DNA of 64,000 nt. Origin: Erythroxylum novogranatense (Eukaryota; Streptophyta; Magnoliopsida; Malpighiales; Erythroxylaceae). The notes under the pieces were generated by a model. That model was not told the origin of the DNA and ran no database searches. It saw only the letters and a program-made list of their open reading frames with translations. Each line of letters starts with the position of its first letter. The first letter of the stretch is position 1. The translations under genes and the position numbers were made by a program. The stretch covers positions 31,513,402 to 31,577,401 of the forward strand of contig CM057230.1 of assembly GCA_029891385.1 (NCBI GenBank), in the 5' to 3' direction. Shown piece by piece: positions 13,131 through 63,970 of this stretch.

Positions 13131-13833
13131 TGTACTTCCTGAATCCTGCAATAAACTGACATTCCAGCTCATTTATTGTGACAAAATCTTTTTAAACTCT
13201 TGAAAAAGACAATAGAATTGTTACTTACACATCACGCACAGGACAAGCCTCCCCAAGGCCAACTTGCTCCTGTCCTCGCTGATTACCAATAAAGCAGATA
13301 AGGACCAGTGCCTAAAATTGTTATAACAATATTAACGATTTTTTATTATTATTGAGCCCTGTGACTGTGATAATTAACTGAGATAAAATGTTAATGAAAA
13401 TATAAGAGTTGTGATGGAATTAAATAGGATTGAAGGACTTGCTACAATGTGTAACCCAAATCAGCTTACCGTAAATTCTTAATGATAAGAAAACACAATG
13501 TGTCTGTCTCTGTCCAATATTTTAAAGGAAATGCAGACGGGAGTCAACGGTCGCGCCGACAACGGAGTTATTTGGTTCAAAATCCAGATATGAACTTGAG
13601 TCAGCTTCACGATCAAATCTTTAACGCCCCTGTTCCTGTGCAGACTTGTGTTCCCTTTCCGTTTCAGGCTTTTAAACGTACAGCACGGGTCATTCACGCG
13701 TTTATATGTCACTTCGTTGAAATTCATCCTTCGTTGTCATTACCCTCGTTGCCCATCTCTCTGTTTATGGTTTGTTTCTTCTTCTTTTTTTCTGAAAGCC
13801 CTTGGCTTCAATTTTTCTTGTTTGGTTAGCAAA
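13131..13833 (+). promoter_or_regulatory. upstream region of the CRK3-like gene
   Basis: There is no gene between the LINE and the start codon. The last 200 bases are pyrimidine-rich (TCTTCTTC-type), typical of a plant 5' leader. An open frame continuous with the CDS extends upstream to 13648 but gives no signal peptide at its start, so the ATG at 13834 is preferred. No TATA box could be assigned with certainty. Confidence 0.4.
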
Positions 13834-16603
<2,770 letters not shown>

Positions 16604-19600
16604 ATTTTTCGCGGAGAGTTGCATTCTATGTTTAACTTGAGGTCTTGAGCTGCGCTTGACTTGCAAGGAATTCATCTTCTTCTGCTCATACATTTCACTC
16701 AGTTGAAAATCAGCCACTCCGTTGTTGAAGTCATTGAACGAGCAGTTCGTGATGGTCCCTGATGACCGCGTACGAGATGAATAAGGACATTCGGCTTAAC
16801 AATTTGTAGATCTCCTAACGCCACTCACTATTCTTAGCACCTGTCAGGTTTAGTTTAGGTTGTAAATTGCAGGTTAAGCCACTTTATGTGCTTTACTGTA
16901 GAAAACTAAAAATTGGATTATTACTCGAGGAGATAGTTCTTGCTTCCCTCGCTCCGCTGTACTTTTGGTCATTATAATCCTGTAAAGACTCGATACTGAA
17001 TCGATAGCTTGTACTCTTCCTTTACCGGTACAAAAGCTTTTTACCAAGTTGCTAAAATATTTTTCTGGATTTAGTCGTTTGAAATTTGAGGTTAAAATTT
17101 TATCTTTTATAAAAAACTTATCCGAGTCGAGCGAGAATTAGTCTGAAAATGAATGATTTAAAGGTATCTTTTTTTAATTGAAATTTTCCCAACAAAAAAA
17201 AAAAAAAAACGTAAAGAATAGTGGTTAGTTACATATGCAACATCTTTTCAGCAACAACTCACTTTTAAAACAATTAAATGACATCCAGAAACTAACTGGT
17301 AATGACTACTCATCAACAAATCCTTAAATGTCAAAGCATGATTTTATAAGCCAGTTCGATCCAGAGCGTACATGCATACTTTTGCTCCAAAGTCAAAAAT
17401 GTCAGGTTGGCTTTTTGTATCCATCTCTGGGTATCTGAAAATAAAATCAGTCTTCTAGAACACCGTAACATCACATTAATCAATATCCTCATTTTATGGC
17501 CTTAAAATTACCATTCATGTCGGTATTAATGTTTGTTTATGTCCTTAAGAAAAGGATTAGCTGACCCTGCAAATAAGAAAAGCCAACTTGGAGTGTCATC
17601 ATTGGTGATTATGCGATTTAAGTCAATAAGATTGCTATATTTCTATAAAATCATACTATTATAATATATTGGGACAGAGCAGTCGTCTTATAAATAAAAA
17701 CGTCGTTGGTAGGTACATAAATTACATGTTAATATGAGTGCCAGTCTATGTGATCTTACCTGCAGTCAGTCAGTCATGTCTTAGTCCTATTTAAGTATCT
17801 TGTGAAGGTTATGAAATAAATCTACAAACTGGATATTCGTTTAATTCAATCTTTAAGTTATAAATTATTGAGTAGACGAGAAATTCAAATGTGTTAAAAA
17901 TAACAACACTAATTCAGTACAAACTGTTTTTGAAAATACGACGTTAAGAACGATTAAATAATATGTAATTTTACTCTTAATTAACATATATGTTTCGAAC
18001 ATGTTAAAATAAAACGTTTGACATAATGACTGAAATCAAACCGTAATTTATCTCCCTCATATAATATCGAGCTAGAATATAGAGACGCCTAAAATGAGCG
18101 CTCCACATTTTGAGTACATGAGTAAAACGTCTTACACTTTTTCTTTCTTCAAAAGAGGAGGCCATCAGTGCACTATTCAAAGGCTCAAAGTATGATAATT
18201 CAAACTTCAAAGGCTGTCTAGATATAGAGTCAACAGTGTAATTATTGCTCTACTTGTAAATGAAACTGCAATGAATGATTAAATGGAATTAGAAAGGCCA
18301 AGCTGAATTGCTGATAAATAGAACAGCACAAAAAGGTGGAGTACAACTTTTGCAGTTAACTTAGGAGCTGCATTTTTTTGTTTTTTCTGTCCACTGGGAC
18401 TCAGTAGCCAATAAAGAATTGAAATGTGGTCTTGGAATTTGACCTGACTTTGGCTCCTCTGAAGTATTGGTGTTTCTGGTTGAATTTTACAGATAAACCA
18501 AAGCTTCCCACAAGCCTGTCCCCACTTTGACTTCTGTTACATCGCTTACGCGCATTTCACGGTATAACCCTTTCGCCATCCTTAATAATGTACCAGAATG
18601 GAAACACGTAGTTGGTCTTGCATAGACTCAGCTTCAAGAATTTCAGCTGCCCAATGCGGTGAATGAAGGTACGAACTTTGATCTAATCATATACGCTACA
18701 AGTTCTCATCTTTCTTCCCCGTGCTTAATATTTAGGAAATCAAAGATCTTCAAAAGTTTCAGTTTTTGATTCCTTATTTGAACAAGGGTTGCTTGTAGTC
18801 TAAGTGCTAGTCAAGGATTCCTTATAACGAATCGGGAGGGTATTTGTCTATGGTGAAAGAGAACAAAAAGAAAAGAGCATCTCTGTTTGGTCTGGTAAAT
18901 TCCATTTGTTGAAGTTTCCTGTTTTCTGCTTTATCAAGTCTGCTTCAGCTTGAAGAAATAGCCCTTTGATACTGCTAACATGGATACTCAAGAACTGATC
19001 CTGTTCTTCACAATTTGACCTTCGATGTTATTTATGTTAGCTCATGAAAGAACATGCAAATAACTACATATTGACAATTTTTGTTGCACAAACGTTTGTG
19101 TACTGGTACGAGAGGATTCGTACTTTGGTGTGAAATCAACATAATTTCAAGGATTCATACTGTTTAGTTATCTTCGTCGTTATCCCAATTTTGCTGTAAT
19201 GGGATTGATACATGGGTATGACGCCATGAGGACAGCTGGCTATCGGTGGTGGTGACGACGGGACCCATTATCAAGTCGATTACTAAAGGATCGGTTTATG
19301 TGGAAGCATTCAAATGAAAGATAACACTTATCCTGTTCCCGATGGTCCCAAAAACCTTGCCGTTCTTTGTTTTCTGTGTCCGTCCATTTACTGTCTCGTT
19401 TAAATGATGCAGCCCACCCTTTCTATTGGGGTTGACTGAGATAACTCCTTTAGCTGTGCGTCTTTTTCTTCCCTTTTCATGGAGAACTTGTGAACCTGGT
19501 TGCCATATTTGGTACAAATAAGACTAGGGCAAGAGGTTGCGAGGGCTATATTTTCCTGAGACTCATAGTCTAGAAACAATTGGCCTGTAAACTTCGTTAA

Positions 19601-20004
19601 TAAATGTGAAAGCAGGAAACTTCACTAAAACCTACCCCTTTGACTTGAGCTTTAGACAGAGAGCATCTCCATCTACCTGTAAGGTGGTGCAGAAGATGCA
19701 AGTGAACAATTTCCCTTTTAACTTTGTAAATCGGTGCCAAGAAAAGCTTCTTGGCTCGGCCACTACAGGAGCTATGCAATCAACCAAATTGTTTATTTAT
19801 TTGGAATGACTTCGCCTTTTGATTTCTTGCTCGATAATTCCCACTCCTTTCGCTCGTTTCTTTTTTGGTTTACCCTTACTCCTGAAGATCTATTACTTTC
19901 GGCTGCATTCCTTTACTGTTACCAAGCACCATCTTGTTTGACTTGTTTTTCTCTTGAACAGAGGAGCTTTCTTCATAATCAAGCCAATTCAGTTTCGGCC
20001 AAAG
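16604..20004 (+). other. intergenic: CRK3-like 3' flank and CRK2-like upstream region
   Basis: 3.4 kb without a supported gene. It includes an A-run (17194-17210) and AT-rich stretches. From about 19,600 the DNA becomes pyrimidine-rich toward the CRK2-like start. Short ORFs here (18004-18210, 19296-19517, 19606-20078) show no family signature. Confidence 0.5.
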
Positions 20005-22646
20005 ATGAGAAAGCACGTAACTTTAGTGCACTTTCAATGTATCTTATTCTGCCTTGGAGGGTTCCTATTGTTACGTGAAGGAGTGGTGGGAGATCCCAGA
20101 GCCCAAACTGTCAACATTACGTGTGGGCGACAACTTGAGCACAACTCAACTATCTTTGTGCCAAACTTTGTCGCTACAATGGAGAACATCAGTGAACAGA
20201 TGCGTTCTTCAGGTTTTGGAGTAGCTCTTACGGGTTCAGGACCTGACCAAAACTATGGCCTCGCCCAATGTTATGGCGACCTCTCTTTGCTTGACTGTGT
20301 GTTATGCTACGCTGAGGCACGTACTATTCTACCACAGTGCTATCCTTTCAACAGTGGTCGCATCTTTCTTGACGGTTGCTTCATGAGATCAGAAAATTAC
20401 AGCTTCTTTGAGCAGTACAAGGGACCTGAAGACAAGGCTGTTTGTGGAAATGCAACTCAGAAGACCTCAACATTTCAAGAATCAGCTCGTCAGGCTGTGT
20501 CGCTAGCAGTCGCAAGTGCTCCAAATAATAAAGGCTATGCCCGAGCTCAGGTGCCAGTTTCAGGGACTAATGAGTCAGCTAATGTTCTAGCTCAATGCTG
20601 GAGAACGCTGAATGCAAGTTCTTGCACAGCATGCTTAGAGAACGCATCTTCATCTATACTGGGGTGTTTACCGTGGTCAGAGGGCAGAGCACTTAATACT
20701 GGGTGCTTTATGAGGTACTCGGATAGAGATTTTCTCAACAAAGAACAAAGCAGTGGAAGTTCAAGAGGTGATTAATTGTTCTTTCTAAGATTGCAGTATC
20801 AGCTGATTGTTGATTCAGTTTCAGGCCATTGATCTCTTATCAAGCATGAACTGAGTGTGGGTTTTGATTAATAAATGCAGGTACTGTGATTGTAATAGTT
20901 GTTTCAGTTGTCAGCTCTCTAGTGGTTATAGCAGTCGGTTCAGCTATAGGAGTTTATGTATGGAAACACAGATATATTCAGAAGAAAAGGAAAGGTAAAT
21001 GCATTTCAATTTACATCCATTGCTGGCTTCTGCAAATCTCCAACCTAGCCCAGGCACATGTGAAATCAGTATGCAGGCAATATGTGTTCTATTAGAATCT
21101 TGGGATTACTTATATTATTGATCTTTCAGGTTCAAATGACGCAGAAAAGTTGGTGAAGATCCTGTATGACAGTAGCTTGAATTTCAAGTACTCAACTCTT
21201 GAGAAAGCTACAGGATCATTTGACGATGCCAACAAGCTTGGACAAGGAGGCTTTGGATCAGTGTACAAGGTAGTTCTATTTTTTCCCCCCTTTTCACTGT
21301 TTATCGTCAAAATTAATATCCTTTCTTTCTTCTTTGTCTCAATCTCAGGGTGTTTTACCTGATGGAAGAGAGATAGCTGTGAAGAGGCTTTTCTTTAACA
21401 ACAGACACAGAGCAGCAGATTTCTACAATGAAGTTAACATGATTAGTAGCGTGGAACACAAAAACCTGGTCAGGTTATTAGGGTGCAGTTGTTCGGGGCC
21501 TGAAAGCCTTCTCGTCTATGAATTCCTGCCTAACAAGAGTCTTGACCGTTACATCTTTGGTACTAACACATTAATCCTTAGGTTTGAGTTTTACAATATT
21601 TGTTGTCTACAGTTTTCAGAACAGGCCGCACTGCCTCTGATAAATCAAATTAGCTGTGGAAAAGCTCTGACACGAGCTTAAATGTTACAGACCAGATCAA
21701 AGGCAAAGCATTAACATGGGACAGGAGATTTGAGATTATTGTTGGAACAGCAGAGGGTTTAGCATACCTTCACGAGAACTCCAAAATCAGGATCATTCAT
21801 AGAGATATAAAGGCCAGTAATATCTTGTTGGATTCAAGGCTTCGTTCTAAAATTGCCGATTTTGGTTTAGCCAGGTCTTTCCAGGAAGATAAGAGTCATA
21901 TCAGCACGGCCATAGCAGGAACTTTGTAAGTTACTATCATTAACATCATCATAACCGAACAAGCACTGGACAATTTTAAGTTCAATAACTATTAACCAAT
22001 GTACTTATAATAGATCTCATTTTGGTAAATCTACAGAGGGTATATGGCTCCAGAGTACCTAGCTCATGGGCAATTAACAGAAAAAGCAGATGTCTACAGC
22101 TTTGGCGTTCTTATATTAGAGATTGTTACAGGAAGGCAGAACAATAAGAGCAAAAGTTCAGATTACACCGACAGCTTAGTCATTTTGGTAAGTTATGGAT
22201 CTCGTGTTCCCTGACAAATCCTGATCTTATTCAAGGTAATTACTTTAATGAAAAGTAATAAGATATATAACGAAACCTCATTGGTATCTCCTTCCTCTTG
22301 AAATCAGACCTGGAAGAAATTTCAAGCTAGGACAATCGAAGAGCTCTTTGACCCAAATCTAATGTTGCATGACCATCATAACAGCAATGTAAAGAGTGAT
22401 ATTTTGAGAGTACTGCATGTAGGGCTTCTATGCACCCAGGAGAGTCCATCCCTACGACCAACAATGTCAAAGGCGCTACAGATGCTAGTGACAGAGGAAC
22501 TGCTCCCTGCACCTGCGAATCCCCCTTTCATGGATGAATCAACCTTGGAACTCGGTGACACCTGCGAGGATGTCTCATATCCACTCAATGTTGGTCCTCC
22601 ATCATCTGTTGCAACGGTCAGCTATAGTTCCTTCCGCCCCAGGTGA
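20005..22646 (+). CDS. CRK2: cysteine-rich receptor-like kinase, CRK2-like (DUF26)
   Basis: Seven exons: 20005-20767, 20881-20994, 21130-21269, 21349-21559, 21691-21925, 22037-22187, 22308-22646; 650 residues. Exons 2-5 have exactly the lengths of those in the upstream paralogue (114, 140, 211, 235), showing tandem duplication. A hydrophobic signal peptide precedes GDPRAQTVN. The two DUF26 repeats have C89/C98/C101 and C198/C207/C210, and a membrane helix spans about residues 256-281. The kinase shows [33 protein letters not shown] and [20 protein letters not shown]. The last two motifs and the [10 protein letters not shown] insert mark the CRK2 clade. ATG 20005 is preferred over the upstream ATG at 19954 because the signal peptide then starts at once. 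It is probably a plasma-membrane kinase in stress and ROS signalling. Its 3' end converges on MENG. Confidence 0.93.
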
Positions 22647-43099: not shown

Positions 43100-43102
43100 T
43101 AA

Positions 43103-43117
43103 CCCTGCGTTTGGTTA
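43103..43117. repeat. left TIR of the PIF/Harbinger element
   Basis: CCCTGCGTTTGGTTA, matched exactly in inverse at 50378-50392. Confidence 0.9.
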
Positions 43118-43437
43118 GTGTCTGCAGCAGGTTGGGACAGGATGAGACAAGACAGAGTTGGACGGGACAGGACAAGAACTGAAGACAGTGAGATGTTTGG
43201 TTGCAGTGGACAGGACAACAGATATTGTGCTTGTCCTGAGGACAGAAATGTGTTTGGTTGCAGGGGACAGAACAAGAAACAGTGTTAATGACAAAAATGC
43301 CCTTATAGTATAATAAGAAGAGTTGTTGTAATTCATTTATTATTTTATCATTGTATAATTATTTACATTACAATATTTAATTATGCTATTACCCACTTGT
43401 AGCTGTAATAAAATTTATAATTATTCAAATTTATCAA

Positions 43438-43539
<102 letters not shown>

Positions 43540-43930
43540 CCTATTATGACTTCTATTTGTTAATGTTATTAATTTTAGTATGATATTTGTTAAACAAAGT
43601 TAGTTATGTTATTTTAAGTAATATTATTATTGTGATTAATTATTGTTATTATTAGTGAGATTTATTCTAAATTATGTAATCAAATAACAAGAATAATTAT
43701 TAGTCATTACTAATAATTATAATGCAACGTTATTATTTGTTAGTATTAGTTTATAAAAATTAAACTAATTATTAATAGTTTGTAATTAAACGCAATTACC
43801 TGGATTCTTCTTCTTATTATGATTATAATAATAAACATTAGTTAGGACAAACAAATTACATAAAACATCTGAACATTACATAATAGGTTCAAATAAGTTT
43901 GACAACCAAGAAATTCAAATACATAATAAT

Positions 43931-44353
43931 TTACATAAATTTAGCTAGAATCTCCTTAATGATGAATCCCAAAATGACCCCAACAGCAATTAGTAACAAG
44001 TCACGAGTAGATGCCATTTGTTCCTCCAATGTTGCAATTGCGATTGGTTGTTCGGTTGGGACAACTGCGATTGGAAGTGACGTTGTTGGCAGTGATGGTG
44101 GGAGCAGGTTTGCTGCGGGTGCATTGGCCGGTCCAGTGGGGGTAGGCTGAATTTGGTTGTTTGGACGATTGCGCACATGTTGATCCCTGGTATAAGCAGT
44201 TTCCGCTTCTTCCAAGGTCCGATACCCCTTAAATCTAGCATTTGGGAAGCCCTGAGTTTGCAATCTCACGTCGTCCCAATTAGTGAATATTCCCACTTGT
44301 CGTCCAATGAAGACAACATAATAGCTGTATCTGGCCATAGTGATGTACGCCAA
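43931..44353 (-). CDS. third PIF ORF: RNase H1 N-terminal (viroplasmin-like) domain plus tail anchor
   Basis: 140 residues, uninterrupted, with ATGs at 44353 and 44338. Residues about 8-54 contain RYSYYVVFIGRQVGIFTNWD, then QTQGFPNARFKGYRTLEEAE. This is the pattern of the RNase H1 N-terminal hybrid-binding domain (PF01693, named viroplasmin after caulimoviruses): YYVV..GR..GI...W......GFP.A.FKG(F/Y)...EEA. A Pro/Asn-rich linker of about 50 residues follows. The last 23 residues (DLLLIAVGVILGFIIKEILA then KFM) form a hydrophobic helix ending at the C-terminus, as in tail-anchored proteins. There is no RNase H catalytic domain. It lies 438 bp downstream of the Myb ORF on the same strand. Binding RNA:DNA hybrid or RNA at a membrane is my inference; the role in the transposon is unknown. 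Confidence 0.75.
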   Translation of the reverse strand: MAYITMARYSYYVVFIGRQVGIFTNWDDVRLQTQGFPNARFKGYRTLEEAETAYTRDQHVRNRPNNQIQPTPTGPANAPAANLLPPSLPTTSLPIAVVPTEQPIAIATLEEQMASTRDLLLIAVGVILGFIIKEILAKFM

Positions 44354-44791
44354 TGTAAAATATCACAACCATTTATGAACGTACTGAAACATGTATCCAC
44401 TGGAATAATGTTAAACCCAACCATTGAGCATTGACAGAAATGCTAGCAACCATAGTCACAACTATATCATCTCATCAATAGACATCACCATGTACGAAAA
44501 CAAATAAGTTAAGTTTGACGGATGGTAACCATTATACATGTCCATATAATCGAAACAAATTAACATACAAATATAAGGTCATTTCTCATAAAGTCAGAAT
44601 TGATCACGTAAAAGCCTCCGCACATAGGCCTTCTTTTGTTCTGCTTTTAACCCCCAGAAAAGAGTCCCAGTATGAGCATTTCTCGCGAAGATCATTGTTG
44701 TCGTAACAATGTCTTCAGTGGAGAAACCTAACCGCTCAAGCTCGTCACTAAGCTGGGGAATTTGCGGCTCGGGATTTTGTTGCTGGGGAAT

Positions 44792-45602
44792 TTACTGTTC
44801 GGGATGTTGCATTTTCTGATTCATGGCTTCTGCAATGAGCTCCGCACTCTTTGCACTGGATTCAGCGGCACGAGCAAGTGTTGTAGCAAGGTTTGCCAAC
44901 ATTGTATTGTCCCTCACCTTCCGTTTCTTGGAAGGTGGTTGGGTGCCGTCTGCGTTGGAAGAGGAGGCGACGGATCCACCAACACGGATGGTTGTTGCTG
45001 CCGTGTGAGTGTCTGCTGGTCTTGGTTCACTCAATGGGGAACCATGAAAGGGTGAAGCTGCTGGTTCACCATCTTCATTTTCTTCCGCATCAAACTGAAC
45101 CTCAGCATCTTCCGGATCTTGAGATGTTGCACCAGTGACTCTATCCTTCCCAAATACTGACTCAAGTCTACGGTACAATGGAAACGGCTTCCCAGGGGTA
45201 TAGTGCCTATTAGGGTGGCTCTGCAAAAATTATAAAAATAATGTTAGCATGATAACCAAAAATATCAGCATCATGCGTATACAAACATCTTACCCTCATC
45301 CATTCGTCAAGGACTTGCTTGCTTTCTACATCGACGCATTGTTTGCTTTCGTTCCACCCAAAGCCACTGCATTGCAACATGTCATACGTTGTCTGATATT
45401 TTTCCTTAAGCCTTTTATGCTTATTTTGGATATGTCTCTTCTCGATTCCACACTCAGGAAACTTCTCAACCATCTTTCTAGCAATCGCTTGGAAAGTCCC
45501 AGGCTTAAATTGGCCATTGTCCGCTCTCTGGCCATCAACAACCGCCTCTTCCAACAAGGTAACGAATGTGTCTGTTTCATCGTCTGTCCAAACCCGTGAC
45601 AT
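44792..45602 (-). CDS. PIF/Harbinger Myb/SANT-like accessory protein (ORF1)
   Basis: Two exons on the minus strand, 45294-45602 and 44792-45220; 245 residues. The N-terminal region SRVWTDDETDTFVTLLEEAV, with later KRHIQNKHKRLKEKYQTTYD and GFGWNE, is a Myb_DNA-bind_3-type trihelix/SANT domain. The C-terminal half is acidic then Ser/Pro-rich, and PPSKKRKVRDN is a clear basic nuclear signal. The final part (LATTLARAAESSAKSAELIA) is an Ala-rich helix that may oligomerise. In PIF/Harbinger elements the Myb-like protein binds subterminal DNA and brings the transposase into the nucleus. ATG 45602 is chosen over upstream in-frame ATGs because the domain starts there. It lies 171 bp downstream of the transposase stop. 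Confidence 0.85.
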
Positions 45603-45773
45603 TGTACCTAACCCATACAATGTCATACCCCAAACCATGACAGTAACCAAAGTAAACGAAACATGTAATTTGTGCAGGTTGAAATAAGGCAACATTTAAG
45701 TAAACGAAACATGTAATTAAGAACAAACGCAGTCAACAGCATGAACACAAATGGTAATATAAAGTTCACAGGT

Positions 45774-47157
45774 TTAATGGTTTCTTCTCCATTCAGCAAA
45801 CATGTTGTTCGCTAAATCATCTCTCCATTGAGTCCATTCATTACTTGGTTCAACACGATCGAGAAATTCTGGCAACGCTCTATCTTCCCCAATTGGCATA
45901 TCCTCATCTTCAAGAGCAGTGCTCTCGAGTGGATCAACACTCATATGCAACCTAATAAAATTGTGCAGAAGGCAGCATGCCAGAATGATGTGCACATGAG
46001 TGGCGGGATTATAGAAAGAGGGATTTCTAAGGATTTTCCATCTTTTTTTCAGTACGCCAAATGCACGTTCAATCACATTTCTGGCAGATGAGTGTCTCTT
46101 ATTATAAAGCTCATGAGGATTCCGTGGTGCCCTTCCATCTCTTGCCCACTCTTGAATATGGTATCTTGTGCCTCTATAAGGTGCAAGAAAACCAGGACCA
46201 TTTGTATAACCAGCATCTACTAAGTAGTAATTTCCTATAAGCAATAAACACAATCACTTAATGGTTCTGTAATCAACATGCCAAAAAACACATTGCTAAT
46301 TTCTAACCATTCCATTCTTACATACCCCGTGGAACTTGAAGTCCATGTGGCCTACTCACAGCATCATGGAGAACCCGTGAATCCGCAGCTGAACCCTCCC
46401 AGCCAGCGAGGATATAAACAAAGTTTAAGTCCTTATCACACACTCCTAAAACATTAGTGCATATTCTCCCTTTCCTTCCTCTGTATCTGGGTTTGTCTAC
46501 CTTGGGTACTATTATATCTAAATAAGTCCCATCTAGAGCACCCAGGCAACCCTATGTTTTAAATTGCAAACACCAAAAAGTCTTATTAAATTATTGCATA
46601 AAGTTAAATGACACAATGCATTGTGGCAACATAAATTAACTAACCTTAAACCATTTCCATCTATGGTCTGTGCAGTCCTCTGGGATTGGTATAGGCTTGA
46701 CAAGCAACAGTTGTCGAAGCCTGATTACAGCTCTTAACACACTATGGAAGGCTCTACTTATTGTTTCTCCTGATCTCATAAACCTAACTTGTAATACTCT
46801 ATTAGATTCGTTTTGTGCTAATATTCTTAGGAAGATTAAAACTTTTTCCTCAATTGGCACATGGCCATTATCCCTCAACCTACCATGGCCCTGAAGCATT
46901 TGACATAACAATGTAAATGCATTATTGTCCATCCTTAAATCCCACTGACTATTCCTATCACCCTCATGCAAAATCCGATATATATTGGCTTGTCTGTTAG
47001 GTACTGTTAATGCCCTAGAACCTTGCGCATTTTCACTTCTACGACGCTGTTTAGTGTATACATACAAGCATAACAACATTAACATTCTCATCAAATTCAA
47101 ATGCCCATTCCAAAGCTCAAACAAAGCCAAACACTCAAACATATGATCATGATCCAT
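45774..47157 (-). CDS. PIF/Harbinger DDE transposase (DDE_Tnp_4), apparently intact
   Basis: Three exons on the minus strand: 46645-47157, 46326-46551, 45774-46234; about 399 residues with no stop or shift. Exon 1 holds the N-terminal helical region ([20 protein letters not shown] and [15 protein letters not shown]). The catalytic domain starts [12 protein letters not shown] (first Asp), continues through [20 protein letters not shown] to [16 protein letters not shown] (second Asp), then NYYLVDAGY, and ends with [17 protein letters not shown] (Glu). All three catalytic residues are therefore present. It catalyses cut-and-paste at TWA targets together with the Myb-like partner. The start is the first ATG of the open frame and might lie further downstream. 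The exon-intron plan was read from GT-AG signals and frame continuity. Confidence 0.88.
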
Positions 47158-47971
47158 TCAGCCCAAATTTGTAACAACAACTATCTGCGCAGAGAAATGA
47201 ATATAATGATCATCAACAACATTTTTATGTATGTATACAATACCTACATTTGTAAATATGTAGAGAATAGTAAGAATTGCATGCCATCTTGACAAATTGC
47301 GGAAGGAAAAGGATTAGTAAGAATTGCATATAATAGGTGAACATGGAAGGATAATGAGTAATAAGCATAAAATATGTCATTTTCTTTGTGAAATTGTACT
47401 GCCAATTCTTGTGGAAATAACAGTCAGAAGTAAATTTTTATTGTCTACAAAACCGAAGCATATGTATGTAATCAAAATAACATGGAATTTATCGAAATTG
47501 CTCTTATATTAATGTAAATTCAATGTGCTTCCTTTCTTTTGATAAGGGTTATGAAATGTTTAAAAGTTGAACCACCTTTGTAATGTGTGTGAACTTCATG
47601 CATCAGGATTGAATGTCATAATTGATCTATTAAAATTGCATTATTATTTGCACTTTAACTAGAAAAGTTAGCTGTATGTACAAAAGGTTAGAAACTGATA
47701 TTTGTTTAGGGGAGTTTATGTCATATTGTCTACAATTTCAGCACAAAACACTACAATAATTACAAATGATATAACAATCACACAAACACAATAGATTAAA
47801 TAAAGCAAAACATCGAGCTTACAAACACAAAGAATATTTGAAAATGAAGGTAAGATAAAGAAGGACTTACCACTTTGATAAGAAGTATCCAAAATGCAAG
47901 TATTCGAATGCAAGCAGATTGTTGTACAACTAATGCAAGTTCCACACCCTGAAACAGTCAATTTCAACTAA

Positions 47972-48610
47972 TTGATTAGTTTACTCAAGTTCAAAAATGC
48001 CCAACACCAACTTGAAATAATTCTCCATTTCAGAAATAGCACGCATGTTAACATAAAGCACACCCTCACAGACCTATTTATTCAAAAATCCACCTCTGTT
48101 ATGGATTCTCAAATTAACAGAAGTAACCTGCCCAGAAAGCAAGATAGTAGTGTTCCCAAGGAAACTGACATTCCAATCAATCCTTCTCATGCTGGCGATG
48201 AGTCAATTAAAGAGAGAGGATCAGCAAATGCTGCCACTGATGCACAATATCAAGCTCCATTTCCCAAAAGCATAACTTCAGATGCCAAGTTGGAGCCGAC
48301 TAAACCAGAAAGACAGGAAAAGGTTTCAAGTGGTAAAGTTGTCTCAGTTCCCCGTTAAAAAACCTATGATCCTGAGATGTTCTTTAAAGTTAATGGGAAA
48401 CTGTACCAAAGGCTTGGTAAGATAGGAAGTGGAGGAAGTAGTGAAGTTCACAAAGTCATTTCTTCAGAATGTACAATCTATGCGCTCAAGAAAATCAAGC
48501 TCAAGGGTTGTGATTATGCAACAACTTATGGATTTTGCCAGGAAATTGAGTATCTGAACAAACTGAAGGGAAAAAACAACATTATACAACTAGTAGACTA
48601 CGAGGTACTT
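47972..48610 (+). pseudogene. captured fragment of an MPS1/TTK-type kinase gene
   Basis: The plus strand, opposite to the transposon genes, has a frame with VMDSQINRSNLPRKQD and a Ser/Lys-rich linker. An in-frame TAA (48356-48358) follows, and in the same frame [50 protein letters not shown] and then [10 protein letters not shown]. This is the junction of the N-terminal tail and kinase lobe of plant MPS1 spindle-checkpoint kinase (glycine loop [12 protein letters not shown] lysine). After DYE the sequence passes into GTACTTG, an intron donor, so genomic rather than spliced DNA was taken. The HRD and DFG regions are absent. It is a truncated fragment, not a working kinase. Confidence 0.8.
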
Positions 48611-49440
48611 GTTTGCAACCTAAAGCAATTGGTTTCAAGTAATATCTTGTTCAAGGTTGTGTGGATTTATGGTGATACAAAATATTGAATAGTTGACTAT
48701 GCATTTGAAAATAGAGCAAAGACTTAGACTATATATGATTAACAAAATTCACGAAGTAATGGGATGGTGAACTTTAATTTGTGTTGAATAATTACATGTT
48801 ATTCTGTGAAGGAGGTAGTAAACACGTCCTGTGTTAAGGAACAAAGTATGTGGAACGTGGCACAGTGTAGTTGGCATCTACACTCTTCAAATGAAACATT
48901 AGGAATATTGTTCACAAAAAATTCCTTAACCCTCATCCCATGTTATTCTTGTCAGATGAAACATTAGTTGGCATCTACACTCTTCAGTGGTTTGATTACT
49001 TCTTTAAAAGAAGAAAAGGAAAAATACAAAACCATTTAACAAAAGAAAACCATCAAAAGTAGTAATATCAATATGAAAACCCAACAAGGTAGGGTATAGC
49101 TAGCTTAGGAATCTTTTAAGTTACAAAGGAAAAAAGGCCAACTAAAGACATTTAAAAGACAGAAGCAACATCTTTCGTATGTGCTAATGGGAAAAGAAGT
49201 GAAAGCAATGCTACCTGAAGCTTGTAAAAGCAAGAATAGAAGCATCAGAACACTTGGCAGTGGCAAATATTAACAAACTTTAATTTGCACTGTGCCCAGG
49301 AGACTTTGTGGAGTCATATATAATATCACACTAGTCCATAAGTTGAGCCTTTAATTTGTAATTACAATATAATCCATATAAAAGAGTAGTTAACAGGAAA
49401 AGGGGAAATTTTAAAAGGAAGATTTTGAAACAGTTGTTCT
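48611..49440. other. PIF element interior without recognised genes
   Basis: AT-rich DNA following the kinase fragment. Its first part is probably the captured intron. No further exon was seen. Confidence 0.4.
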
Positions 49441-49460
49441 ACCTCCTGCAATAAATTGAA

Positions 49461-49560
49461 GCCAAGACTACAACCTCAAATCAACCTAATGTCTTTACCC
49501 ACGCGTTTCCAGTCCCCTCTTTACCCAAGACTACAACCTCAAATCAACCTAATGTCTCTA
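49461..49560. repeat. short direct repeat in the PIF element
   Basis: Two copies of CCAAGACTACAACCTCAAAT followed by CAACCTAATGTCT, starting near 49462 and 49525. Confidence 0.8.
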
Positions 49561-49721
49561 GTTTCTGAAACCGCACTTTTGACCACCACATCCATCTTGC
49601 CCTCCATTTCGTCCCACCCGGCCTTGAACCTTCCTCAATCTGCCAGCACTCACACACATCGCTTTGTGTCTTACCCAGAAGCGAGGAAACATTGAAGAAG
49701 ATAATTTCCAAACATAAACCC

Positions 49722-49927
49722 ACATTCTAAATCAACATTGCACAACGTACGTTCATAAACCCAGAAGAAGAAGAAGATAAATTCCACACATAACCCACAT
49801 TCTAAACGGTAGCATGAATGTCGTACCCACATTCTAAATCAACATTGAAGAACGTATGTTCATAAACCCAGAAGAAGAAGAAGATAAATTCCAAACATAA
49901 CCAAAACGGTAGCATGAATGTCTTACC
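49722..49927. repeat. two-copy tandem repeat (about 105 bp) near the right end of the PIF element
   Basis: The unit, starting CACATTCTAAATCAACATTG and containing an (AGA)n-rich core, occurs at about 49722-49828 and again at 49829-49927. It lies upstream of the transposase, so it may fall in its promoter region. Confidence 0.8.
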
Positions 49928-50377
49928 CAGAAGCGAGGAAAGATGGAGGGACGCTGCTTCAACGAAGACGGAGGTTTGTTGGAAACGGAACAAAAATCTG
50001 GGGAAGAACGAGACGCAAACAATGAGCACATGTATGGAGAATAGAGAGAGATTAGTAGAATATGTACACCCATATGCGTACATTGACGGGGGAAGAGAAG
50101 CTTCTGCTACTTACCTTGCCGATCAGTGGAGATGAAGATTTGGACGCAGTTGTTGAAGACGGAGATGGTTTTGTATGTCGTGTTTGCTGGAGGTTATAAT
50201 CGCCTTTTCAAATGGTTGTCTGTCGGTCCTGGTTCAACGTCCGACGTTTTTGAGTTGGACGAATTTTGTTGTCCGTGTCCTTTAAAGTTCAGACGGAAAT
50301 TAGTTAGGACGGTAACCAAACGCACCTTCGGACAGAACTTTTATGTCCTTGTCATCCGTCTTCACGTCCGAAGACGG

Positions 50378-50392
50378 TAACCAAACGCAGGG
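50378..50392. repeat. right TIR of the PIF/Harbinger element
   Basis: TAACCAAACGCAGGG, the exact reverse complement of the left TIR. It is followed by the TAA target duplication. Confidence 0.9.
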
Positions 50393-50395
50393 TAA

Positions 50396-61891: not shown

Positions 61892-63970
61892 ATGAGTTTC
61901 AGCGATAGATCTTGGATGTATAAACGTTTAACCGCCGATGGTTTCATTAATCTTGAATTTGTTGAGGGAGTTCATGCGTTCATTCATTACGCATGTTCGC
62001 AACCTGCATATATGGATGGGTCAAAGATCAGATGTCCATGTAAAAAATGCAAGCACAAATGTTTCCTTTCAATTGATGAAGTTCAGTTGCATTTGTTGAG
62101 AAAAGGGTTTGTTCCGAACTATTTCTAGTGGACCCGACACGGGGAACCCTTGGTTGCTAACACCTCACGGAGAAGTGACGAACATACGTCAATGAACTTA
62201 AATGAGAATGTGGTTGAGGATGGATATGGAAGAAATGTTGGTGATCGGCCGGAAAACCCTTACAGACAAATGGTGCATAATGGACTTGGTCATACATATG
62301 AGTCATCTGGGGAAAATGTTGACGAAGAACCTAACCCGCAGGCAAAACAATTTTTTGACTTACTACAGTCAGCTGACCGCGAATTATGGCCAAATTGTGA
62401 GACAATGACTCAGTTGTCATCAATTGCTCGCATATTGAACATAAAGAGTGAAAGTCATATTTCAGATCGCAGTTTTGATAAAATCCTTGAGTGGTACAAC
62501 GAATCGTTGCCAGTTGATCATACAATGGTTGATAGTTTTTACAACATGAAGAAACTTATTCGTGGTCTTGGTTTGCCTGTGGAAAAAATTGACTGTTGTC
62601 GTCTCGGATGTATGCTGTATTGGGGAGACGATATGAACTTAGACCAATGTAAATTTTGTGGTCAACAAAGGTTTCAGCCTAGAAAATGGTCAACGAAATA
62701 GAAATTAGTTCCATGAAAGTGGATGTATTATTTTCCGCTGACTCCTAGATTGCAGAGGCTTTATGCCTCTGAAGTGACTGCATCCCAGATGAGATGGCAT
62801 GCTGAACACGAACAGGAAGATGGAGTAATGACTCATCCATTAGATGCTTTGGCATGGAAACATTTTAATGACACTCATGTTGATTTTGCAGTTGACAGTC
62901 GAAATGTTCGGTTGGGATTGTCAACAAATGGCTTTCAACCGTTTGGTCAATTTGGTCAACAATATTCCTCATGGCCAATTCTCATAACTCCTTATAATTT
63001 GCCTCCTTGGATGTGTATGAAAGAGGCATATATGTTCTTAACAGTGATTGTCCTTGGGCCCACAAATCCGAAGCAAAAAATTGATGTGTTCTTACAGTCA
63101 TTGATTGGTGAATTGCAACAGCTTTGGGACTATGGTGTTCAAACTTATGATGTATCTAAGCAACAAAATTTTGTGTTACGAGCAGCTTTGATGTGGACTA
63201 TTAGTGACTTCCCAGCCTTTGCCATGTTATCTGGATGGACAACCGCTGGAAAGTTGGCATGTCCTTATTGTGGCGATGATTCTGATGCCTTTTATCTGCC
63301 AAATGGAAGCAAAATGTGTTGGTTTGACAATCACAGGAAATTTCTACCTTCAAATCATCCGTTTAGGCGGAATAAATATAAGTTTAGGAAAAATAGGACG
63401 GTAAACATTCGTCCTCATCCTATCAAATCCGGTGAAGAGATTTTGCAAAAGATTGACGAATTAGGCTTGCTGAAAGTAACAGAATTAGAGGCCAATGAAG
63501 TAAATTCAACCATTAGTCAGAACTTTGGTTGGCGCAAACGAAGTATATTTTGGGTTTTGCCATATTGGAAAACGAATTTGATTCGTCATAATCTAGATGT
63601 GATGCACATTGAGAAGAACATATTTGACAACTTGTTCAATACCATTATGAACATTGAAGGTAAGACAAAAGATAATGCAAAATCTCGAGCTGATTTGCAA
63701 CTTTTTTGTAAACGGAATGAGTTACATAAAGATCTTCGCACTGGTAAATACCCAAAAGCATGTTACACTTTGGACAAGAGACACAAGGAGCTTATATGTG
63801 AATGGTTGAAAAATCTTAAGTTTCCTGATGGATATGTTTCAAACTTGGCAAGGTGTGTGGATCTAAGGAAGTGCAAATTATTTGGGATGAAAAGTCATGA
63901 TTGTCATGTATTCATGCAAAGGCTTATCCCAATTGCATTCCGGGAGTGTTTACCTTCTAAGGTATGGTAA
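61892..63970 (+). pseudogene. CACTA transposase (Transposase_21 type) with in-frame stops
   Basis: A single frame from 61892 to the window end is broken only by stops at 62126-62128 (TAG), 62699-62701 (TAG), 62714-62716 (TGA) and 63968-63970 (TAA). The N-terminus DRSWMYKRLTADGFINLEFV and IRCPCKKCKH is the transposase-associated zinc domain (PF13963). LGCMLYWGDD and CKFCGQQRF precede YFPLTPRLQRLYAS, the start of Transposase_21 (PF02992), with DALAWKHFN, VRLGLSTNGFQPFG, ACPYCGDDSDAF and HNLDVMHIEKNIFDNLF. The product would bind and cut CACTA ends. After the last stop the frame goes on (AITELSLFFK) to the window edge, toward the DUF4218 region. Confidence 0.85.

What the first reader, a model, noticed from the sequence alone, without database searches (positions are those of the whole stretch)
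43931..44353. A PIF/Harbinger transposon carrying a membrane-anchored RNA:DNA-hybrid-binding-like protein
Besides the two standard proteins (DDE transposase and Myb-like), this element has a third open frame on the same strand. It joins an RNase H1 N-terminal/viroplasmin-type domain (YYVVFIGRQVGIFTNW, GFPNARFKGYRTLEEAE) to a C-terminal hydrophobic tail, without a nuclease domain. I know of no described role for such a protein in a DNA transposon. Candidate roles are binding hybrids or RNA at the nuclear envelope or ER, shielding transposon transcripts, or suppressing silencing; all are inference.
Basis: partly seen in the sequence, partly recalled or inferred. Interest (0 to 1): 0.9.

Follow-up and report, generated by a model that had tools for sequence, protein, structure and literature searches.

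The report
Harbinger transposon with conserved third gene
A large family of plant jumping genes that should carry two genes also carries a third, well-preserved gene for a small protein that looks built to grip RNA:DNA or double-stranded RNA while anchored in a membrane, perhaps to shield the element from the plant's silencing defences.

Summary
Window 43931-44338 (-) encodes 135 aa: an RNase H1 hybrid-binding domain (PF01693, E 1.8e-16), a disordered linker and a C-terminal hydrophobic helix. It lies in a complete PIF/Harbinger element, 43103-50392, behind the DDE transposase and Myb genes. It is not a chance capture. In the same 1.3-Gb plant genome (very likely Erythroxylum novogranatense), 19 of 20 sampled PF01693 loci show transposase, Myb and this ORF in that order on one strand. 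All 35 transposase/domain pairs within 15 kb in the capped hit lists share strand and order. Eight of 21 loci have matched ends and duplications around all three genes. Domain dN/dS is 0.17, transposase exons 0.22-0.41. Y7, W21 and F36 are invariant in 30 copies. The tail stays more hydrophobic than neutral simulation allows, 0 of 5,000. A distant Harbinger family in the same genome (3 loci) has transposase and Myb but no such domain. Function is inferred: most likely membrane-tethered binding of RNA:DNA hybrids or dsRNA that protects the element from silencing. Not tested: expression, binding, location, other plants.

The parts
43100..43102 (.). target site duplication TAA, left
   Evidence: identical TAA at 50393-50395
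43103..43117 (.). left terminal inverted repeat CCCTGCGTTTGGTTA
   Evidence: matches the right end; a 17-mer from it with up to 3 mismatches is found twice in the window, 0.08 expected
43931..44338 (-). ORF3, 135 aa: RNase H1 hybrid-binding domain + linker + hydrophobic C-terminal helix
44183..44338 (-). hybrid-binding domain, residues 1-52
   Evidence: PF01693 residues 6-47; dN/dS 0.17-0.19
43937..44029 (-). C-terminal helix, residues 104-134, membrane-type
   Evidence: AF2 helix, block pLDDT 88-95 from residue 111; hydrophobicity conserved
44597..45602 (-). ORF1: Myb/SANT-like protein, two exons (about 45602-45305 and 45226-44597, splice sites judged by eye) with an in-frame stop near 44792-44794 in this copy
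   Evidence: PF12776 E 1.3e-15; frames; MLLE-related C-terminus below cut-off
45774..47157 (-). DDE transposase, three open exons (about 47157-46641, 46553-46330, 46247-45774; splice sites judged by eye)
   Evidence: PF13359 on exons 2 and 3; frames; 584 homologues of exon 3 at E<=0.001, and in the listed best 120 every row whose name gives an organism is a plant
47972..48688 (+). captured fragment of an MPS1/TTK-like kinase gene inside the element, with an in-frame stop
   Evidence: PF00069; TTK chains, best E 1.7e-12; no DNA match in the loci L001-L038, of which only the 20 ten-kb loci reach that part
50378..50392 (.). right terminal inverted repeat
50393..50395 (.). target site duplication TAA, right

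Best explanation
This is a lineage of PIF/Harbinger transposons with three genes instead of two: DDE transposase, Myb/SANT protein and, last on the same strand, a conserved accessory gene (ORF3). SHOWN: ORF3 is inherited with the element, its hybrid-binding domain is under strong purifying selection, and it has a conserved hydrophobic C-terminal helix (about 0.95). INFERRED: the protein is tail-anchored in the ER or nuclear envelope (or an organelle outer membrane), with the domain facing cytosol or nucleoplasm (about 0.75); it binds A-form-like duplexes, RNA:DNA hybrids or dsRNA (about 0.8); by holding the element's own hybrids or dsRNA at a membrane it keeps them from RDR/DCL processing and RNA-directed methylation, so the element stays expressed (about 0.4).
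For: Gene order transposase-Myb-ORF3 on one strand in 19 of 20 loci that I picked across the 150 listed domain hits (the first-exon Myb query was out of frame, the other Myb pieces there were in frame). All 35 listed transposase/domain pairs within 15 kb have the same strand with transposase upstream, 32 of them at 1-4 kb; for the first 25 pairs random placement gave a mean of 0.54, at most 2. 8 of 21 loci have matching ends and 3-bp duplication enclosing all three genes. Domain dN/dS 0.17 in 26 copies, broken ones included; transposase exons 0.41, 0.22, 0.33; Myb segments 0.28, 0.47, 0.55. ORF3-domain and transposase distances correlate over 23 loci, Mantel r 0.635, 0 of 5000 permutations. 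Aromatics matching human hybrid-contact positions are invariant in 30 copies and K37 is kept in 29 of 30 (the contact positions are recalled). Tail hydrophobicity exceeds neutral simulations, 0 of 5000 with 16 copies (L017 left out) and 0 of 5000 with 7 clade representatives. Foldseek top hits are 3bsu chains, probability 1.00. Analogies from passages or abstracts: caulimovirus P6/TAV shares the domain type, binds duplex RNA and suppresses silencing (PMC3759858 passages, PMC7102451 introduction); VANDAL elements encode the anti-silencing protein VANC (PMC5735166 abstract).
Against: No expression, binding, location or silencing data. The part of P6/TAV that suppresses silencing had not been mapped (passage in PMC3759858), so the analogy does not show that this domain does it. 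The linker is near neutral (0.90), the tail at 0.65 is only weakly constrained at residue level, and the whole ORF is at 0.47. The second lysine of the human domain is G in 30 of 30 copies. The window copy's tail is borderline for insertion (+0.36) and 5 of 17 copies are above zero. L017's tail reads into a different sequence. Foldseek E values are weak (0.014; none <=0.001). L020 has discordant transposase and ORF3 placement. The 13 of 21 loci without matched ends were not resolved. No other plant genome could be searched.
Confidence: 0.5

Rival explanations
1. Transposition cofactor: ORF3 binds R-loops or hybrids at the element and tethers the donor DNA or transposase complex to the nuclear envelope, aiding excision, repair or integration.
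For: It is conserved together with transposase and Myb and its distances track the transposase; the domain is the most constrained of the seven segments measured.
Against: The superfamily is described as needing two element proteins for mobilisation, ORF1 and TPase (PMC2836001, start of abstract seen in the listing). A related Harbinger family in this genome has no such domain.
Confidence: 0.22
2. Translation or mRNA-localisation factor: ORF3 keeps element mRNA on ER membranes and promotes its translation, as P6/TAV does for caulimovirus RNA.
For: Same domain type as TAV; a membrane-type tail.
Against: No Pfam domain other than PF01693 is found; the rest of ORF3 is a linker and the tail.
Confidence: 0.13
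3. The C-terminal helix is an oligomerisation helix rather than a membrane anchor, so ORF3 is a soluble multivalent duplex binder (not exclusive of the roles above).
For: Apparent free energy above zero in the window copy and 4 more of 17; conserved small residues in the helix.
Against: 12 of 17 copies score below zero and 163 of 211 tail differences between clade representatives are hydrophobic-to-hydrophobic.
Confidence: 0.15
4. Hitchhiking capture: a fragment of a host RNase H1 gene carried passively, like the kinase fragment in the same element.
For: The same element carries a captured MPS1-like fragment.
Against: ORF3 is found across the sampled lineage with domain dN/dS 0.17, whereas the kinase fragment was found in no other fetched locus and carries a stop.
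Confidence: 0.03

Closest known systems
PIF/Harbinger superfamily (two-gene DNA transposons)
   Same: TIRs, TAA/TTA duplication, DDE_Tnp_4 transposase, Myb/SANT protein
   Different: A third conserved gene; a survey of 380 PHIS families names only Myb/SANT or YqaJ proteins as additional ORFs (PMC4482050, passages seen)
RNase H1 hybrid-binding domain (human 3bsu, yeast 1qhk)
   Same: Fold and conserved aromatic residues
   Different: No RNase H catalytic domain; linker plus hydrophobic tail instead
Caulimovirus P6/TAV (viroplasmin)
   Same: Carries a domain of the same type (the Pfam family's own name is Cauli_VI) and binds RNA, double-stranded included (PMC7102451 introduction, PMC3759858 passages)
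   Different: TAV is a 520-residue protein with other domains; ORF3 is 135 aa with a hydrophobic tail. No caulimovirus sequence was compared here
VANC of Arabidopsis VANDAL MULEs
   Same: Works like it in the proposed sense: a transposon-encoded accessory protein against silencing (PMC5735166 abstract)
   Different: VANC binds DNA motifs; ORF3 has an RNase H1-type duplex-binding domain and sits in another superfamily; anti-silencing untested here
PF01693 gene capE captured in a Pleurotus Helitron
   Same: PF01693 domain inside a DNA transposon (PMC4289320 passages)
   Different: A captured gene in a fungal Helitron copy, not a conserved gene of a transposon lineage
Small HBD proteins with a C-terminal hydrophobic segment: P0140, P0200, P0202, P0203, P0205, P0210
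   Same: Same two-part layout, 84-125 aa (P0140, P0200, P0202 and P0210 scored below zero)
   Different: From contigs whose organism is not given, no transposon context visible, no proline-rich linker

Membership tests
PIF/Harbinger | DDE transposase of the PF13359/PF04827 type | tested here: met
PIF/Harbinger | second protein with Myb/SANT domain | tested here: met
   PF12776 58.6 bits, cut-off 23.6
PIF/Harbinger | TIRs with 3-bp TWA target duplication | tested here: met
   TAA in the window; TTA or TAA in 7 and TCA in 1 of the 8 loci matched out of 21
PIF/Harbinger | only two element genes | tested here: not met
   third gene in 19 of 20 sampled loci; not a strict criterion of the superfamily
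RNase H1 hybrid-binding domain (PF01693) | profile score over the curated cut-off | tested here: met
   60.6 vs 21 bits
RNase H1 hybrid-binding domain (PF01693) | conserved hybrid-contacting aromatics and lysines (positions recalled) | tested here: inconclusive
   Y7, W21, F36 in 30 of 30, K37 in 29 of 30, but the second lysine is G in 30 of 30
RNase H1 hybrid-binding domain (PF01693) | binding to RNA:DNA hybrid or dsRNA | not testable with these tools
   needs a binding assay
RNase H1 enzyme | RNase H catalytic domain (PF00075) | tested here: not met
   no such hit at E<=1
Tail-anchored membrane proteins | single hydrophobic segment close to the C-terminus | tested here: met
   hydrophobicity conserved; free-energy estimate borderline in the window copy
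Tail-anchored membrane proteins | insertion into a membrane | not testable with these tools
   needs fractionation or imaging
Transposon-encoded anti-silencing proteins (VANC-like in function) | loss of methylation or small RNAs at own element | not testable with these tools
   needs plants or cell assays

The most novel reading that the evidence does not exclude
A branch of PIF/Harbinger encodes a dedicated silencing suppressor that works by a mechanism I know of for no DNA transposon: a membrane-tethered RNA:DNA-hybrid/dsRNA-binding protein that removes the element's own duplexes from RNA silencing. The small HBD-plus-hydrophobic-tail proteins seen in other contigs are members of the same wider class.
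Probability: 0.3. Interest if true: 0.92.

Novelty: new variant of a known kind. Interest (0 to 1): 0.78.

Why it matters
PIF/Harbinger is described as a two-gene superfamily. A third gene whose main domain is more constrained than the transposase exons measured here, in a genome with 1,336 first-look candidates for that domain (150 scored, all over cut-off), means this lineage needs something beyond cutting, pasting and DNA binding. It offers a testable case of how a cut-and-paste transposon may cope with RNA-based silencing, links transposons to the viroplasmin/RNase H1 domain of plant pararetroviruses, and would be a new kind of membrane-localised duplex-binding protein.

Tried and rejected
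Chance capture was rejected. RNase H1 enzyme was rejected: no catalytic domain. A chance long frame was rejected on the domain match. A protein search with ORF3 alone found nothing at E<=0.001 among 39 candidates; this tool needs shared exact words, and the transposase exon search showed that the database does hold plant proteins, so the negative means no close relatives with shared words, not no relatives. Two scans of viral contigs found no relative. A widened search with a bait alignment returned 327 hits at E<=10 among 675 candidates; of the 120 listed, 101 also carry PF00075 (RNase H) and the organism names given are bacterial. I fetched the 19 listed without PF00075 and picked out by eye six with a C-terminal hydrophobic segment; a seventh considered, P0209, scored +2.47.

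All ten paper searches covered open-licence PMC full text only. Judged from listings, plus passages, sections or abstracts of the eight papers opened, none describes this gene in a Harbinger element. Repbase and subscription papers were not searchable, so 'not in print' is not shown. In one search one Myb query was translated in the wrong frame (corrected). The dN/dS set is 17 of 30 unique loci; 13 were dropped as truncated, frameshifted, run-on or N-containing. One search kept broken copies for the domain and gave 0.17. NG86 counts with Jukes-Cantor correction were used, no tree-based codon model. The neutral tail test treats copies as independent and left out L017; the seven-representative rerun only lessens the first problem. 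The three loci of the family without the domain (L029, L032, L035) are 81-93% alike in their Myb gene, so they are one comparison, not three.

Full report
WHAT WAS CHECKED. The ORF is real: 43931-44338 (-), 135 aa. PF01693 matches residues 6-47 at E 1.8e-16, far above the curated cut-off, and no other Pfam family reaches E<=1. The closest solved structure by sequence is the human RNase H1 hybrid-binding domain 3bsu (E 7e-7). A single-sequence AlphaFold2 model shows the domain (residues 6-56; block pLDDT 78-90 up to residue 50), a low-confidence linker and one C-terminal helix 104-134 (88-95 from residue 111). Foldseek puts 3bsu chains first (probability 1.00, E 0.014, none at E<=0.001). The tail has a Kyte-Doolittle mean of up to 2.53.

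THE ELEMENT. The terminal inverted repeats CCCTGCGTTTGGTTA lie at 43103 and 50392, flanked by TAA on both sides, so the element is 7,290 bp. On the minus strand it holds a three-exon DDE transposase (PF13359 on exons 2 and 3), a two-exon Myb/SANT gene (PF12776) with one in-frame stop in this copy, then ORF3. Splice sites were judged by eye. Both ends carry TTTGGTT and GGACA repeats. Between the right end and the transposase lies a plus-strand fragment of an MPS1/TTK-like kinase gene with a stop. No DNA match to it was found in L001-L038, of which only the 20 ten-kb loci reach that part: a capture private to this copy or to a subfamily not sampled.

THE GENOME. The window lies in a 1.30-Gb assembly. 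One of its contigs (C10, 96,963,822 bases) has exactly the length given for the contig of P0001 from Erythroxylum novogranatense, so the host is very likely that species (Malpighiales); this is inference. PF01693 has 1,336 first-look candidates there; 150 were scored, all 150 over cut-off, 4 with an in-frame stop. A DNA pattern for the motif QVGIFT(N/S)W has 169 exact matches and none for the reversed control.

SYNTENY. I fetched 10 kb around 20 of the 150 hits, picked by me across the ranking. In 19 of 20 the transposase and Myb gene lie upstream of ORF3 on the same strand. The exception, L025, has an intact ORF3 but no transposase or Myb match in 10 kb. The listed transposase places (150 typed) and the listed domain places (219 after merging) give 35 pairs within 15 kb: 35 of 35 same strand with transposase upstream, 32 at 1-4 kb. 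For the first comparison, 25 pairs, random placement gave a mean of 0.54 and at most 2. Both lists are capped, so 32 of 150 transposases is a lower bound.

Starting from transposases that I picked, 5 of 10 loci have ORF3 in the fetched stretch. The other five: L029, L032 and L035, transposase exon 3 at 47-52% identity; L031, 55%, with 3,986 N downstream, not assessable; and L037, 78%, with neither Myb nor ORF3 matches in the 5 kb. L032 has a Myb gene (PF12776 E 1.1e-16), and L029 and L035 match it at 81-93% in the same place, so these three are one standard two-gene family. A family HMM found no hybrid-binding domain in L029, L032 and L035 nor in the 5 kb upstream of L029 and L035 (upstream of L032 was not held), while two positive-control loci scored over 110 bits. 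So the gene belongs to one lineage, not to all Harbingers of the genome. Eight of 21 loci (window plus 20) have ends and matching 3-bp duplications (TTA/TAA in 7, TCA in 1) around all three genes; in the other 13 no matched pair was found with that simple search.

SELECTION. For 17 intact ORF3 copies of 30 unique loci (NG86) pooled dN/dS is 0.19 for the domain (126 of 126 pairs below 1), 0.90 for the linker, 0.65 for the tail and 0.47 overall. With 26 copies, broken ones included, the domain gives 0.17 against 0.41, 0.22 and 0.33 for three transposase exons and 0.28, 0.47 and 0.55 for three Myb segments. In 30 copies Y7, W21 and F36 are invariant, K37 is kept in 29, and the position of the second human lysine is G in all (which human residues touch the hybrid is recalled). 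The tail keeps hydrophobic character rather than sequence: mean hydropathy 2.58 against 1.65 in neutral simulation, 0 of 5000, with 16 copies (L017, whose tail is altered, left out), and 2.51 against 1.58 with 7 clade representatives, 0 of 5000. Apparent insertion free energy (constants recalled) is below zero in 12 of 17 copies and +0.36 in the window copy; six other pieces of the element's proteins score 2.2 to 7.0. Pairwise distances of transposase and ORF3 domain correlate (23 loci, r 0.635, 0 of 5000 permutations), with L020 discordant, so ORF3 has mostly travelled with its transposase.

HOW IT MOST LIKELY WORKS. The constrained parts are a duplex-binding fold and a membrane-type tail joined by a free linker. 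That is a tether: the tail fixes the protein to a membrane, the linker lets the domain reach, the domain grips RNA:DNA hybrid or dsRNA. Why an element that never passes through a replicating RNA intermediate would keep this is best answered by defence: plants silence transposons through dsRNA, small RNAs and RNA-directed methylation (general knowledge). Caulimovirus P6/TAV, which has this domain type, binds duplex RNA and suppresses silencing, although the responsible part was not mapped in the review whose passages I saw (PMC3759858; PMC7102451, introduction). Another plant DNA transposon encodes an anti-silencing protein of a different kind (VANC, PMC5735166, abstract). Rivals are a transposition cofactor at the nuclear envelope and an mRNA-localisation factor.

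WHAT IS KNOWN. A survey of 380 PHIS families names only Myb/SANT or YqaJ proteins as additional ORFs (PMC4482050, passages). A Pleurotus Helitron carries a captured PF01693 gene (PMC4289320, passages). Ten searches of open-licence papers listed no report of such a gene in Harbinger elements. I therefore file it as a Harbinger lineage with a new third gene: new variant of a known kind.

LIMITS. One genome; no expression, binding or localisation data; occurrence in other plants untested. Six small proteins of the same two-part layout from contigs without organism names hint at a wider class but have no visible context.

Noticed in passing
window 47972-48688 (+): Fragment of an MPS1/TTK-like kinase gene with an in-frame stop captured inside the element; no DNA match in the other loci held at that time.
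   Followed up: partly
window 44792-44794 (-): In-frame stop in the Myb gene of this copy, cutting off a segment that weakly resembles an MLLE-related domain, below cut-off.
   Followed up: partly
L025 2231-2641 (-): Intact ORF3-like gene with tail but no transposase or Myb match in the 10 kb; copia-type coding pieces nearby (recognised by eye). Orphan copy, deletion derivative or possible domesticated gene.
   Followed up: partly
L020: Transposase groups with the window's clade but ORF3 with another clade: chimera, nested insertion or recombination between families.
   Followed up: no
P0140, P0200, P0202, P0203, P0205, P0210: Small proteins of 84-125 aa with the hybrid-binding domain and a C-terminal hydrophobic segment, from contigs without organism names.
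   Followed up: partly
window 43437-43540: Long (ATT)n microsatellite inside the element, downstream of ORF3.
   Followed up: no
window 62129-63970 (+): Long frames that look like a CACTA-type transposase (recognised by eye, not tested).
   Followed up: no
window 13600-22646 (+): Frames that look like cysteine-rich receptor-like kinase genes (recognised by eye, not tested).
   Followed up: no
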